Source: Pseudomonadota bacterium (GTDB taxonomy: Bacteria; Desulfobacterota; Binatia; Binatales; Binataceae). Taken from it: a DNA stretch of 64,000 nt. Below the pieces are notes generated by a model. It ran no database searches, was not told where the DNA came from, and saw only the letters and a program-made list of their open reading frames with translations. The position numbers were made by a program, and so were the translations under genes. Where the stretch lies: NCBI GenBank assembly GCA_021324885.1, contig JAJPIF010000005.1:1-64000 (forward strand), written 5' to 3'. Shown here piece by piece: positions 51,369-61,653 of this stretch. The first letter of the stretch is position 1. The number at the start of each line of letters is the position of its first letter.

Positions 51369-51719
51369 TCAGGCAAAGGCCTTTTTCAGCGCATCGCGAT
51401 CGAAGCCCGCGATCAGCCGTTTGCCCGCGGCCGTCAGCGGCCGTTTGATTACGCGCGGCTCCTGCGCCATCAACTTGATCGCCTGATCGGCGCTGAGTTT
51501 GCCCGCATCCAGACCCGTCGCTTTGAAGGCGGGGCTCTTCGGATTGAGGAAATCGCGCGGGTCGTGGCCGGCAAAGATCTCCCGCAATTCCTCCTCCGTC
51601 AGCGGCTTTTTGGCGTAATCGCGTTCGACGAGATCAACCTTCAGTTCGGAGCGCAGGAACTCCCGCGCCTGGCGACAGGTCGTTCAGGTTGAACGCCAGA
51701 AAAATCGCGCCTTCTTCAT
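51369..51719 (-). CDS. ArsC/Spx-like thioredoxin-fold protein, probable selenoprotein with in-frame UGA
   Basis: Reading from the ATG at 51719 gives MKKARFFWRST, then TGA (51686-51684), then TTCRQAREFLRSELKV and an intact ArsC-family remainder with GHDPRDFLN, LMAQEPRVIKRPLT and FDRDALKKAF. Total 116 codons plus stop, the normal family length. Members carry Cys-x-x-Cys at the start of the first helix. Here TGA is exactly at the first Cys and C15 is the second, so reading it as selenocysteine gives U12-T-T-C15. A conventional call would start at an internal ATG and keep only 72 residues. The ATG follows 14 bases after the stop of the upstream gene, so they are likely coupled. A Cys-to-stop mutation or sequencing error is the alternative. 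Confidence 0.8.
51651..51668 (-). promoter_or_regulatory. Candidate bacterial SECIS element
   Basis: On the minus strand, GCGCGGG pairs with CCUGCGC (7 bp, one G-U) around the four-base loop AGUU, whose second base is G. The loop begins 22 bases after the UGA. Bacterial SECIS hairpins are known to sit in the coding region just after UGA, with a small apical loop carrying G in its first two positions about 16-37 nt downstream. This hairpin meets all three criteria. Confidence 0.65.
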
Positions 51720-51733
51720 GTGCTCTTTGCGCC

Positions 51734-52342
51734 TTATTCGATGTCGTGCTCACGCACAGGACCAGTGCCCGAATCTCCCGGCCCCGTGATGCTGGTAGTA
51801 AAATGGCCGGCCAGCGGCGGCGCTCCCACGGCGCCAGAAGCCGACCTCGGAGCGCTCGAACTGACCGGCGAGTTTGGATAAACCGGCGTACCGCTCGACG
51901 CGATCGAGGGCGGCGGATTGGAATTGCTGGTCGGCCCCGGCGCCGGCTGCGTCACTGGATAGGACGGGCCACTGAAATGAATTGGGGCGTCGCCACGAAT
52001 CATGTCGGGCGTCAGCACATAGTCGCCGCCCAGCGAACTGCGCCAGATTGAATCGGCCGTTTGCTGATTGCCGCCGGTCAGGGCGTAGCCCGCTCCACCG
52101 GCAATACCGCCCAAAATGGCGTAAACGGTCTTGGCCGGGATGTAGCCGACGTTGGCCAGCAAGGTGGCGGCGCCGATGCCGGCGCCTTTCCAGTTAACTC
52201 CGCCATTTTCCGGTTGCTCCACCTGCGGTGTTCCCGGTGGATTGACCGGCTGCGCCGGCGTGCTCTGGGCCCAAGCGCCCAGCGGCATCATTACAACCAA
52301 GGCGAGTGCCGTGATGGCAAACCTGAAACCTCCGCGTCCCAT
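51734..52342 (-). CDS. Exported hypothetical protein, 202 aa
   Basis: A signal peptide (FAITALALVVMMPLGAWAQ) is followed by a segment with Gly/Ala-rich hydrophobic stretch (VNWKGAGIGAATLLANVGYIPAKTVYAILGGIAGG, split across two short helices) and a Pro/Ser-rich C-terminal half. The central VGYIPAKTVYAILGG resembles small hydrophobic segments of envelope proteins, but I cannot name a family. It stops 14 bp before the ArsC-like gene. Confidence 0.65.
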   Translation of the reverse strand: MGRGGFRFAITALALVVMMPLGAWAQSTPAQPVNPPGTPQVEQPENGGVNWKGAGIGAATLLANVGYIPAKTVYAILGGIAGGAGYALTGGNQQTADSIWRSSLGGDYVLTPDMIRGDAPIHFSGPSYPVTQPAPGPTSNSNPPPSIASSGTPVYPNSPVSSSAPRSASGAVGAPPLAGHFTTSITGPGDSGTGPVREHDIE

Positions 52343-52408: not shown

Positions 52409-53140
52409 TCATTCCGTTTTTACTACCACGTCTGCGGGCAGCAATTCGAGTAGGTAAGCAAACGCGTCATCGACGTAGGCGCGGTCTTTCGATTCCAAAG
52501 TGACTTTGACGCGATATTCGGCGTCTCCAATTCGCGGGTAGGAGCCCAGCAACAACTTGGGAAAACGCTCGAGGCAGGCGTCGAGCAGGGCGGCAATTCT
52601 TCCTTCGCCGGCGCTGGTGTAAATCGCGTGCATAAAATAGGGGTCGCTGGCAAAGCGGGACTTGAGCGCTGCCAGCTTGCCTTCGAACAACTGCGGGATG
52701 CCGGGAAGCATGTAAATATTTTCAATCTGCACGGTCGGAAATATCATCGGCCCACCCTCGATCAGCACCGCGCCCTGGGGAACTTCCGCCATCTTGAGTC
52801 CGGCCTTGTTGGGTCGATCGCCGAAATGCTCCCGGATCAGCGCTTCGAGTTGCGGATGTATTACCACGGGCCGATGCAGAGCCGCCGCAACCCCGGCGAC
52901 TGTAATGTCGTCGTGAGTAGGACCGACCCCGCCCGAAGTAATGACGAAATCGAAGCGCTGCGAGCAGTAGCGCACCTCCTCGGCAATCGCCTCGAGCTCG
53001 TCCGGAACCACCACGATGCGCTTTAACGCCACGCCGATGGCGCGCAGTTCGCGAGCGGCAAAATAAGTGTTGGTATCGTGGATTTTGCCCGAGAGGATCT
53101 CGTTGCCAATAACCACGAGCGCACAACTTCGTTCCTGCAT
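52409..53140 (-). CDS. CinA-type MoCF (molybdopterin-binding fold) protein, single domain
   Basis: 243 aa from the ATG at 53140, matching the standard start ALVVIGNEILSGKIHDTNT. It has the family motif TSGGVGPTHDDITVAGVAAAL and MLPGIPQLF. It resembles the N-terminal CinA/COG1058 domain, which hydrolyses ADP-ribose-type pyrophosphates in some members. The C-terminal nicotinamide-nucleotide amidase domain of full-length CinA is absent. The frame also opens at 53206. Confidence 0.88.
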   Translation of the reverse strand: MQERSCALVVIGNEILSGKIHDTNTYFAARELRAIGVALKRIVVVPDELEAIAEEVRYCSQRFDFVITSGGVGPTHDDITVAGVAAALHRPVVIHPQLEALIREHFGDRPNKAGLKMAEVPQGAVLIEGGPMIFPTVQIENIYMLPGIPQLFEGKLAALKSRFASDPYFMHAIYTSAGEGRIAALLDACLERFPKLLLGSYPRIGDAEYRVKVTLESKDRAYVDDAFAYLLELLPADVVVKTE

Positions 53141-53322
53141 CGCGAGCCCGGCTTTCGCTCTCGCGTCCTGAAACCCGCACCCCTGCGCGCCCGGACGCGT
53201 GGCCATCCAGATTGTACTGAATTATCGCAGGAGCCGCGCGCCGACGGCAAGAGCGCTTGGGGCCAAAATCCGGCGCAATCATCCGGTTGCATCGTAACGC
53301 TTGCGGGCTAGACTAGGCTTGC

Positions 53323-57328: not shown

Positions 57329-57489
57329 TTCCCAAAAGCATCCTGATCGCCAACCGCGGCGAGATCGCGATTCGAATCATCCGCGCCGCCGAAATGGAAA
57401 TCCGCACCGTGGCGATCTGCTTTGAAGATAACGGCGGATCGCTGCACCCGGTCAAAACCGACGCCGCCATCGCACTGCGCGCAATCTGA
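57325..57489 (+). pseudogene. N-terminal remnant of a biotin carboxylase / acyl-CoA carboxylase
   Basis: 54 codons beginning with the diagnostic biotin carboxylase start SILIANRGEIAIRIIRAA and continuing IRTVAICFEDNGGSLHPVKTDAAIAL, then a stop. The rest of the 450-1100 aa enzyme is missing in this frame and the two others. The stop lies in the arm of a 10-bp inverted repeat. The ATG overlaps the racemase stop (ATGA), so the original gene was part of that operon. Loss by deletion is more likely than a simple nonsense change. Confidence 0.85.
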
Positions 57490-57713: not shown

Positions 57714-60536
57714 GTGTTATCGATCAGCGACAAGGACTACGGAACACCGCCCCGCAATGCGAGCGGGATGGTCGAACTGGAGATCGACGGCAGACCCGTC
57801 AGCGCGCCGGCGGGCACCTCAGTGATGCGGGCCGCCGCGATGCTGGGAGTGAGCGTTCCCAAGCTGTGCGCGACCGATTCGCTGGAGCCGTACGGCTCGT
57901 GCCGCCTGTGCCTGGTCGAAATCGAAGGGCGCAAAGGTTATCCGGCTTCCTGCACCACGCCGGTCGAACCGGGCATGAAGGTCCGCACCCAGACGCCGCG
58001 CGTAGCCGATTTGCGGCGCAACGTGATGGAACTCTATATCTCCGACCATCCGCTGGATTGCCTCACCTGCCCCGCCAACGGCAACTGCGAATTGCAGGAC
58101 ATGGCCGGGGTCGTCGGCCTGCGCCAGGTCCGTTACGGTTACGACGGCAGCAACCATCTGGATGCCCCCAAAGACGAATCCAATCCGTATTTCACATTCG
58201 ATCCATCCAAGTGCATCGTCTGCGCGCGATGCGTGCGCGCGTGCGAGGAGATCCAGGGGACCTTCGCGCTGACGATCGATGGGCGCGGATTCGGCTCCGT
58301 GATTTCGCCCGGGCAAAACGGGCCGTTCATGGATTCGGAATGCGTGTCGTGCGGCGCCTGCGTGCAGGCCTGTCCCACCGCCACGCTGACGGAAAAATCG
58401 CTGATCGAAAAGGGCCAGGCCGAGCACAGTATCGTCACAACCTGCGGCTACTGCGGCGTCGGATGCTCGTTCAAGGCGGAAATGAAGGGCAACGAAGTGG
58501 TGCGGATGGTCCCCAACAAGGACGGGATGCCCAATCACGGGCATTCCTGCGTCAAGGGGCGCTTCGCATGGGGCTACGCGACCCATCCCGATCGCGTGCT
58601 CAAGCCGATGGTGCGCGACAGTATCGAGGAGCCGTGGCGCGAGGCTTCATGGGAGGAGGCGATCGCGCGCGCTGCGGCCGGGATTAAACGCGTCCAGCGC
58701 AAATACGGACGCGGCGCCGTCGGCGGCATCACGTCCTCGCGATGCACCAACGAGGAAACTTACCTGGTGCAGAAGATGATGCGCGCCGCGCTGGGTACCA
58801 ACAACGTCGATACCTGCGCCCGCGTGTGTCATTCGCCGACCGGCTACGGACTCAAGACCGCGTTCGGCACGTCAGCGGGCACCCAGGATTTCGACTCGGT
58901 GCTCAAAGCCGACGTGGTGATGGTGATCGGAGCTAATCCGACCGAGGCCCATCCGGTGTTCGCCTCGATCATGAAGCGGCGTCTGCGTCAGGGCGCGCAA
59001 CTGATCGTGGTGGATCCGAGAAGGATCGAACTGGTCAAAAGCCCGCATATCGCCGCCGCTTACCATCTGCCGGTGCGCCCCGGCGGCAACGTCGCGCTGA
59101 TCAATGCGATGGCGCATGTGGTTGTGACCGAAGGTCTGGTGGACGAGGAGTTCGTGCGCGAGCGCTGCGAGGGACCCGATTTCGAATTGTGGAAGAGCTT
59201 CATCACGCAGCCGCACAATTCACCCGAAGCGGTGGCGGAGATTATCGGCGTGCCCGCGCGCGACATCCGCGGCGCCGCGCGGCTTTACGCCAGCGCCGGC
59301 AACGCTGTCATCTACTATGGTCTTGGCGTGACCGAACACAGCCAGGGCAGCACGATGGTGCTGGGGATGGCGAATCTGGCGATGGCGACCGGCAATCTGG
59401 GACGAGACGGTGTCGGCGTAAATCCATTGCGCGGCCAGAACAACGTCCAGGGCTCGTGCGACATGGGTTCCTTTCCGCACGAGCTGACCGGCTATCGCCA
59501 TATCTCTGACCCCGTGGTGCGCGAAATGTTCGAAAGGGAGTGGGGCGTCAAACTCGACCCCGAGCCCGGCCTGCGTATCCCCAACATGTTCGACGCGGCG
59601 CTCGACGGCAGTTTCAAAGCATTGTACGTGGAAGGCGAGGATATCGCGCAATCTGATCCCAACAGCAGTCATGTGATTGCGGCGCTGCGCGCGATGGAGT
59701 TCGTCGTCGTCCAGGACATCTTCATGAACGAGACGGCGAAGTACGCGCACGTCTTCCTGCCGGGGTCGTCTTTCCTGGAAAAGAACGGCACGTTTACCAA
59801 CTCGGAGCGGCGAATCTCACTGGTGCGCAAGGCAATCCCGCCGCTGGCCGGCAAGGAGGACTGGGAAATCACCGCCGCGCTGAGCAACGCGCTGGGCTAC
59901 CCGATGCAGTACCGGCATCCCTCAGAGATCATGGATGAGATTGCGCGCTTGACGCCGACGTTCGCCGGCGTCAGCTACGACAAGCTGGAGCGCCTGGGCA
60001 GCGTACAATGGCCCTGCAACGACGCCGCGCCGCAGGGCACGCCGGTGATGCACGTCGGCAAATTCGTGCGCGGCAAGGGCAAGTTCACCCTCACCGAATA
60101 TGTGCCGACCGACGAGCGCACGGGTCCGCGCTATCCGCTATTGCTGACCACCGGCCGGGTGCTGACGCAGTACAACGTCGGCACGCAGACGCGGCGCACC
60201 GCCAACGTGCTCTGGCATAGCGAGGACCGCCTGGAGATCCATCCGCATGACGCCGAACAGCGCGGTATTCGCGACGGCGACTGGGTGTCGGTAAGCAGCC
60301 GCGCCGGGGCGATCACCTTGCGCGCGCTAGTCACCGAGCGGGTCGCGCCGGGCGTCGTGTACACCACATTCCATCATCCGGAAACCGGAACCAACGTGGT
60401 CACGACGGAGAATTCCGACTGGGCCACGAATTGCCCCGAATATAAGGTCACCGCCGTGCAGGTGATGCCCTTGCCGGCGGGACGGGTTCCGAAAGGCCGT
60501 CAGCCCATCCCGGCGCAGCTCGCAGCAGCCAAATAG
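57714..60536 (+). CDS. fdhA: Formate dehydrogenase alpha subunit (NAD-type, Fe-S/molybdopterin)
   Basis: 940-aa molybdo- or tungsto-enzyme. In order: 2Fe-2S domain (C52, C63, C66, C80), His/Cys cluster (H112, C116, C119, C125), two 4Fe-4S clusters (C167-C177 and C210-C220), MopB 4Fe-4S cluster (C244, C247, C251, C279), then the bis-MGD catalytic domain. The metal ligand is C372, followed by H373, in CARVCHSP; the codon is TGT, so it is the cysteine form, not selenocysteine. GTG start with SD CGGAG. It is followed by fdsD and fdhD; no beta/gamma (NADH-oxidising) genes are adjacent. Confidence 0.93.
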   Translation: MLSISDKDYGTPPRNASGMVELEIDGRPVSAPAGTSVMRAAAMLGVSVPKLCATDSLEPYGSCRLCLVEIEGRKGYPASCTTPVEPGMKVRTQTPRVADLRRNVMELYISDHPLDCLTCPANGNCELQDMAGVVGLRQVRYGYDGSNHLDAPKDESNPYFTFDPSKCIVCARCVRACEEIQGTFALTIDGRGFGSVISPGQNGPFMDSECVSCGACVQACPTATLTEKSLIEKGQAEHSIVTTCGYCGVGCSFKAEMKGNEVVRMVPNKDGMPNHGHSCVKGRFAWGYATHPDRVLKPMVRDSIEEPWREASWEEAIARAAAGIKRVQRKYGRGAVGGITSSRCTNEETYLVQKMMRAALGTNNVDTCARVCHSPTGYGLKTAFGTSAGTQDFDSVLKADVVMVIGANPTEAHPVFASIMKRRLRQGAQLIVVDPRRIELVKSPHIAAAYHLPVRPGGNVALINAMAHVVVTEGLVDEEFVRERCEGPDFELWKSFITQPHNSPEAVAEIIGVPARDIRGAARLYASAGNAVIYYGLGVTEHSQGSTMVLGMANLAMATGNLGRDGVGVNPLRGQNNVQGSCDMGSFPHELTGYRHISDPVVREMFEREWGVKLDPEPGLRIPNMFDAALDGSFKALYVEGEDIAQSDPNSSHVIAALRAMEFVVVQDIFMNETAKYAHVFLPGSSFLEKNGTFTNSERRISLVRKAIPPLAGKEDWEITAALSNALGYPMQYRHPSEIMDEIARLTPTFAGVSYDKLERLGSVQWPCNDAAPQGTPVMHVGKFVRGKGKFTLTEYVPTDERTGPRYPLLLTTGRVLTQYNVGTQTRRTANVLWHSEDRLEIHPHDAEQRGIRDGDWVSVSSRAGAITLRALVTERVAPGVVYTTFHHPETGTNVVTTENSDWATNCPEYKVTAVQVMPLPAGRVPKGRQPIPAQLAAAK

Positions 60537-60819: not shown

Positions 60820-61653
60820 ATGGCGGACTTATCGATCAAAAACCGCCCCGCGGTTCGGTGGCGTTTGAGTCAGGATGGGTTTGATCCGGTTGTGGAAACG
60901 CTCGCGGTCGAGGAACCGCTGGAGATCAGGCTGGGCGGCAAACGCTTCACCCTGACCATGCGCACGCCCGGGCACGACCGCGAACTGGCCGCCGGCTTTC
61001 TGCTCGCCGAAGGCTTTATCAATTCGATCGAGGAATTGGGCGAAGTCCGCGCAGTCACCAACAGCAGGGGCGAGCCCGAACCCAACGCGATCGATATTGT
61101 CCTGTGCGTTCCGGCGGCGGGCTTGCGCGAACGGCTCAAGCGCAACTTTACAATTTCATCAAGCTGCGGTGTCTGCGGCAAAACCAGCATCGAATCGATC
61201 CAACGCCGCATCGAGCCGCTGAAGGACGGCGCAAAATTCCGCGCCGAAACCATTCTCAAACTGCCCCATCTGATGCGTCAGGCGCAGCAGGTTTTCAGCA
61301 CTACGGGCGGGCTCCACGCCGCCGCTCTCTTCCGTCCCGCTGACGCCGAGGGGGTCCAACTTGCCGTCCTGCGCGAGGACGTCGGCCGCCACAACGCCGT
61401 GGACAAGGCGGTCGGCCACGCGCTGATTGAAGGATGGTTGCCGCTCAGCTCTTCGATCATGATGGTAAGCGGCAGGCTGAGTTTCGAAATCGTACAGAAG
61501 GCCGCCGCCGCCTCAATCCCGATCCTCGCGGCGGTATCCGCCCCGTCATCTCTGGCCGTCGAACTGGCCGATGAAATCGGCGTGACCCTGGCCGGCTTCG
61601 TGCGCGATCGCGGCTTCAATGTCTATACGCATCCGCAGCGAATCATTGCCTGA
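60820..61653 (+). CDS. fdhD: Sulfurtransferase FdhD
   Basis: 277-aa protein that carries sulfur from a cysteine desulfurase to the molybdenum cofactor of formate dehydrogenase. The CxxC loop is in SSCGVCGK, and VSGRLSFEIVQKAAAA and REDVGRHNAVDKAVGHAL are family signatures. It lies 22 bp after fdsD, consistent with an operon. Confidence 0.94.
   Translation: MADLSIKNRPAVRWRLSQDGFDPVVETLAVEEPLEIRLGGKRFTLTMRTPGHDRELAAGFLLAEGFINSIEELGEVRAVTNSRGEPEPNAIDIVLCVPAAGLRERLKRNFTISSSCGVCGKTSIESIQRRIEPLKDGAKFRAETILKLPHLMRQAQQVFSTTGGLHAAALFRPADAEGVQLAVLREDVGRHNAVDKAVGHALIEGWLPLSSSIMMVSGRLSFEIVQKAAAASIPILAAVSAPSSLAVELADEIGVTLAGFVRDRGFNVYTHPQRIIA

What the first reader, a model, noticed from the sequence alone, without database searches (positions are those of the whole stretch)
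51369..51719. Probable selenoprotein: ArsC/Spx-like protein with U-x-x-C active site encoded by an in-frame TGA
The ArsC-family frame is intact before and after a single TGA. The TGA falls precisely at the first Cys of the expected CxxC redox motif, giving U-T-T-C. The 351-nt gene then has the normal family length and a start 14 nt after the upstream stop. A routine gene caller would report only a 72-aa C-terminal piece. Sec-containing members of thioredoxin-fold families, including ArsC-like ones, are known in bacteria, but this locus would be easily missed.
Basis: partly seen in the sequence, partly recalled or inferred. Interest (0 to 1): 0.92.

Follow-up and report, generated by a model that had tools for sequence, protein, structure and literature searches.

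The report
Selenocysteine-containing Spx/ArsC-like redox protein, Binatota
A small redox gene in an uncultured soil bacterium almost certainly uses a 'stop' codon to insert selenocysteine, as dozens of its relatives do; this is a well-supported new example of a kind of protein already described, not a new kind.

Summary
The observation and its interpretation both hold. Window 51369-51719 (-) encodes a 116-aa ArsC/Spx-fold protein whose codon 12 (51684-51686) is TGA, giving U-T-T-C. The genome (Candidatus Binataceae, Binatota) has SelA, SelB, SelD (itself with an in-frame TGA) and tRNA-Sec(UCA). In all, 49 homologous loci carry TGA at exactly this codon and 13 carry TGC/TGT; I saw no other residue. 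About 21-22 nt after the UGA lies the conserved [A/G]GU[U/C] apical loop of a bacterial-SECIS hairpin. Its stem is kept by rare codons (AGA, GCA) and paired changes. It is lost in most Cys forms. Three Cys-form genomes lack the Sec machinery altogether. So this is a vertically inherited selenoprotein family with several Sec/Cys switches. By fold it ties with Spx and YffB. It lacks two of the three arsenate-binding arginines of ArsC, so I infer a selenol-thiol oxidoreductase rather than an arsenate reductase. UxxC Spx-type 'arsenate reductase 2' selenoproteins were already listed from ocean metagenomes in 2008, so this is a new member of a known kind. The window protein is under the cut-off of every NCBIfam model it matched. 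Selenium incorporation and activity are untested.

The parts
51369..51719 (-). Selenoprotein gene: 116-aa Spx/YffB/ArsC-fold protein with U12-T-T-C15 motif
51684..51686 (-). In-frame TGA decoded as selenocysteine (residue 12)
   Evidence: TGA in 34 and TGC/TGT in 13 homologous loci at this codon; 15 more TGA loci
51650..51669 (-). Predicted bacterial SECIS upper stem-loop: 8-bp stem (two G-U), AGUU apical loop 22 nt after the UGA
51734..52342 (-). Upstream co-directional gene, probable exported protein with a glycine-rich segment, no family match; conserved neighbour
52409..53206 (-). Upstream co-directional MoCF_biosynth + FAD synthase middle-domain protein (CinA-like); conserved neighbour

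Best explanation
The gene is a genuine selenoprotein gene. During translation the UGA at codon 12 is decoded as selenocysteine by SelB, GTP and Sec-tRNA(Sec), directed by the hairpin immediately 3' of the UGA (inferred from the anatomy and the conserved machinery). The product is a thioredoxin-fold protein of the Spx/YffB/ArsC group. Its selenol (U12) is most likely the attacking nucleophile and C15 the resolving thiol, forming a reversible Se-S bond while it reduces a disulfide or other oxidised substrate (inferred). Shown here: the frame, the conserved TGA/Cys alternation, the SECIS constraint, the machinery and the fold (predicted). Inferred: actual Se incorporation, the oxidoreductase role, and the substrate, which is unidentified. 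The confidence given is for the selenoprotein claim; for the oxidoreductase role I would put about 0.75.
For: Own genome: tRNA-Sec (70 bits, UCA anticodon by ARAGORN), SelB (7.1e-112), SelA (1.9e-170), and SelD (1.5e-112) with its own in-frame TGA. At codon 12, 34 TGA against 13 TGC/TGT, plus 15 more TGA loci. Invariant C/U12, C15, R16, R93 and P94. Hairpin: 29 of 34 TGA forms have a stem longer than expected from synonymous recoding (p<0.05), none of 13 Cys forms; mean stem 6.6 bp vs about 2.4 bp. AGA at codon +7 in 27 of 34 TGA forms vs 1 of 13 Cys forms, where AGA is 3% of Arg codons in the window; GCA at +6 in 27 of 34 vs 1 of 13, where GCA is 9% of Ala codons. In 17 distinct hairpins, 98 of 102 inner pair cells pair, against a shuffle mean of 76, reached in 0 of 5000 shuffles. 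[quoted passage not shown] SelA is present in 46 of 48 TGA genomes. Cys-form genomes G027, G032 and G069 show no SelA, SelB or tRNA-Sec. Fold: pLDDT 91.6; Spx 1z3e and YffB 1rw1 both Z 16.8.
Against: No proteomics, reads or biochemistry. Two TGA genomes (G135, G145; fragmented MAGs) show no SelA or SelB, though G145 has tRNA-Sec. A plain folding-energy test was only weakly significant; the signal lies in the specific loop position and the codon choice. Four TGA forms have a shorter or mismatched stem, and two Cys forms have a 6-bp stem by chance or as a relic. Ten Cys-form genomes keep SelA (or part of it), so Sec is not essential to the protein's role.
Confidence: 0.95

Rival explanations
1. 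The TGA is a sequencing error or a true nonsense mutation in a dying gene.
For: A single TGA in a short gene of a MAG could be either.
Against: The same codon is TGA in 49 loci from many assemblies, with TGC/TGT the only alternative. The protein is conserved on both sides (mean column identity 68%). The codons after the TGA are chosen for an RNA hairpin.
Confidence: 0.01
2. A real selenoprotein, but a redox-controlled transcription regulator like Spx, in which U12-C15 is a sensing switch rather than a catalytic pair.
For: Closest solved sequences are Spx (1.3e-21). Fold Z 16.8 to Spx bound to RNA polymerase alpha CTD. The U-x-x-C positions match Spx C10 and C13.
Against: YffB ties with Spx at Z 16.8. 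The residue aligned with Spx Gly52 is Asp (the alignment is gapped there). The protein ends about 15 residues before the Spx tail. Sec is nearly always used for catalysis (established knowledge). TIGR01617 scores 64.5, under its 75.05 cut-off.
Confidence: 0.12
3. A real selenoprotein that is an arsenate reductase.
For: Pfam ArsC domain (1e-15); U12 sits where the ArsC catalytic Cys12 sits.
Against: Of the arsenate-binding Arg60/Arg94/Arg107 (PMC3169414), only the Arg94 equivalent (R93) is kept; the positions of the other two hold other residues. Scores 35 vs cut-off 106 on TIGR00014. True ArsC homologues, some themselves with TGA, exist separately in Binatota genomes.
Confidence: 0.05

Closest known systems
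'Arsenate reductase 2' selenoproteins (UxxC, cd03032) of the Global Ocean Sampling survey (PMC2398784); listed as NF041106, UxxC in a 2026 review (PMC13188914)
   Same: ArsC/Spx-type fold family, Sec at the first position of a UxxC motif
   Different: Scores only 24 bits on NF041106 (cut-off 85), so it lies outside that curated subfamily; here in Binatota, with one Acidobacteria-labelled homologue. The 2008 sequences themselves were not compared.
YffB (Pseudomonas 1rw1; Brucella 2kok)
   Same: Same fold and length (Z 16.8 to 1rw1, 113 aligned, 31% identity); one retained arginine of the ArsC triad; proposed glutathione-dependent thiol reductase
   Different: Sec instead of Cys, and a resolving Cys at +3, whereas Brucella YffB has a single Cys (PMC3169414)
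Spx transcription regulators
   Same: Fold (Z 16.8), C-x-x-C spacing, conserved RP motif
   Different: Sec in place of the first Cys; Asp where Spx has Gly52; no C-terminal tail
ArsC arsenate reductase, including the UxxS selenoprotein form (PMC1088965)
   Same: Pfam family and position of the nucleophile
   Different: UxxC rather than UxxS; two of three arsenate-binding arginines absent

Membership tests
Bacterial selenoproteins | In-frame UGA aligned with conserved Cys of homologues | tested here: met
   49 TGA, 13 TGC/TGT at the codon
Bacterial selenoproteins | SECIS hairpin: 3-9 nt loop with G in first two positions, 16-37 nt from UGA, stem 4-16 bp, MFE <= -7.5 | tested here: met
   Loop AGUU 22 nt after UGA, 8-bp stem; -14.5 kcal/mol for the 33-nt stretch holding it
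Bacterial selenoproteins | SelA, SelB, SelD and tRNA-Sec in the genome | tested here: met
Bacterial selenoproteins | Selenium in the protein | not testable with these tools
   needs mass spectrometry or 75Se labelling
NF041106 ArsC_rel_Se_1 | Score at or above curated cut-off 85 | tested here: not met
   24.3 bits
Spx/MgsR (TIGR01617) | Score at or above curated cut-off 75.05 | tested here: not met
   64.5 bits for the window protein; a relative from another family of the class scores 89.3
Spx regulator | RNA polymerase alpha-CTD interface (Gly52) and transcription control | tested here: inconclusive
   Asp aligned with Gly52 next to a gap; binding untested
ArsC arsenate reductase (TIGR00014) | Arg60/Arg94/Arg107 triad and curated score | tested here: not met
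   Only the Arg94 equivalent kept; 35.2 vs 106 bits
ArsC/Spx/YffB fold | Thioredoxin-like fold with helical insert | tested here: met
   pLDDT 91.6; Z 16.8 to 1z3e and 1rw1 over 113-114 residues

The most novel reading that the evidence does not exclude
The family is a selenol-based redox switch that binds RNA polymerase like Spx. That would be a transcription regulator whose sensing residue is selenocysteine, tying gene expression to selenium supply or to very low peroxide levels.
Probability: 0.08. Interest if true: 0.65.

Novelty: new member of a known kind. Interest (0 to 1): 0.32.

Why it matters
It documents a selenoprotein family found in several families of the class Binatia, which I could not find described as selenium users in the papers held. 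The family keeps its SECIS through a register shift of the hairpin, and has several Sec/Cys switches, some in genomes that lack the whole Sec pathway. Annotation pipelines will tend to truncate the window gene, because it falls under the cut-off of every NCBIfam model it matched. The set makes a good natural experiment on Sec loss, but the principle is known.

Tried and rejected
Rfam had no matching family near the gene. A fold-energy test against synonymous recoding was weak (4 of 34 TGA forms at p<0.05); it was replaced by a test of the specific loop and stem. MAFFT aligned the hairpins by codon, not by loop, so pair counts were made in loop register by script. A tree-based paired test of Sec with SECIS had too few independent pairs for significance. 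A scan of the window for other TGA read-through genes gave no convincing second selenoprotein. Plasmid records gave only distant Spx/ArsC matches (30-33% identity for the best). Papers naming Binatota with selenocysteine or selenium: one each, neither with the subject in its title, neither read in full. One 2025 selenoprotein paper (PMC12013261) that might bear on this family is not held.

Full report
What is there. The - strand of 51369-51719 encodes a 116-residue protein interrupted once, at codon 12, by TGA. The start lies 14 nt after the stop of the upstream gene, and only a 72-aa C-terminal ORF is found mechanically.

Selenium machinery. The window's genome (4.5 Mb, 30 contigs, 96% complete; named close relatives are Candidatus Binataceae) has tRNA-Sec with anticodon UCA, SelB, SelA and SelD. 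SelD carries its own in-frame TGA near its N terminus, as Sec-type SelD proteins do (established knowledge).

Comparative evidence. Among 96 relatives, and then 148 genomes of the class, the homologues of this family show TGA or TGC/TGT at this codon and nothing else wherever I read it. One search gives 34 TGA and 13 Cys loci; add 15 TGA loci. One TGA locus is from an Acidobacteria-labelled MAG (L063). SelA is found in 46 of the 48 class genomes with TGA; the exceptions are G135 and G145, which are fragmented. G145 does have tRNA-Sec. Of 13 Cys-form genomes, ten have SelA (or part of it), while G027, G032 and G069 show no SelA, SelB or tRNA-Sec. A tree needs at least five Sec/Cys changes on its best topology, but few branches are well supported. 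In genus g15 the Cys trio G016, G027 and G032 sits beside Sec forms, and two of the three lack the pathway. The natural reading is Sec replaced by Cys, then loss of machinery (inference).

SECIS. The TGA forms share a hairpin of type CGCAAGA-AGUU-UCUUGCG shortly after the UGA. In the window the hairpin is 51669-51650, with the loop AGUU 22 nt after the UGA. It meets the published bacterial SECIS model (PMC13188914). Against synonymous recoding with the window's codon usage, 29 of 34 TGA forms have an improbably long stem with a G-bearing loop, against none of 13 Cys forms. The encoded Arg and Ala use AGA and GCA in 27 of 34 TGA forms each, although these make up 3% and 9% of their families in the window. 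Cys forms use them once each in 13. Over 17 distinct hairpins aligned on the loop, 98 of 102 inner cells pair, and no shuffle of 5000 reached that; related sequences inflate such a shuffle test, so it supports but does not carry the case. In the window's genus and G004 the hairpin has moved by one nucleotide relative to the codons, with Glu or Lys in place of Ser, yet the loop stays AGUU. In families f14 and f4 the loop is GGUC, with Leu replacing Phe. This points to selection on RNA structure.

What it works like. The predicted structure (pLDDT 91.6) matches Spx and YffB equally (Z 16.8), ahead of E. coli ArsC (13.4-13.5). U12 and C15 occupy the Spx C10/C13 positions. The arsenate triad is reduced to one arginine, as described for YffB, which binds glutathione and is proposed to be a thiol reductase (PMC3169414). 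I therefore favour a selenol-thiol oxidoreductase. A Spx-like regulator cannot be excluded.

Context. In 34-35 of 47 loci the two upstream genes are the same and co-directional: a MoCF_biosynth/FAD-synthase-middle-domain protein and a probable exported protein without family match. The gene is inherited vertically in a stable place (inference); the neighbours do not reveal its substrate.

Comparison with the known. UxxS ArsC selenoproteins were found in the Sargasso Sea (PMC1088965), and UxxC 'arsenate reductase 2' in the Global Ocean Sampling data (PMC2398784); the 2026 catalogue links the latter to NF041106. The window protein scores 24 bits on NF041106 (cut-off 85) and is under the cut-off of every NCBIfam model it matched. 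It is therefore a separate subgroup of a known kind.

Noticed in passing
L086:3023-3373 (-), L128 and L129 near 3070 (+): Separate true-ArsC-type genes (NPGUGQS, NPGUGNS, NPSUGKS) with an in-frame TGA at the ArsC catalytic Cys, giving UxxS, in Binatota genomes G035, G040 and G115. G035 at the same time has the Cys form of the family studied here.
   Followed up: partly
window 57714-60536 (+): Formate dehydrogenase alpha (TIGR01591, 928 bits) is the Cys form (RVCHSP, residue 372) although the genome has the selenocysteine machinery; fdhD follows at 60820-61653.
   Followed up: partly
window 57331-57489 (+): About 52 codons resembling the N terminus of a biotin carboxylase (SILIANRGEIAIRIIRAAEM...) ending in TGA, with no continuation seen: probably a gene remnant.
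   Followed up: no
G035:C18:23069-23160, C18:25930-26021, C70:11402-11488: Three tRNA-Sec matches above the Rfam cut-off in one genome, two of them under 3 kb apart.
   Followed up: no
window 51734-52342 (-): Probable exported protein with a glycine-rich hydrophobic segment, no Pfam or NCBIfam match, conserved directly upstream of the selenoprotein in 35 of 47 loci.
   Followed up: partly
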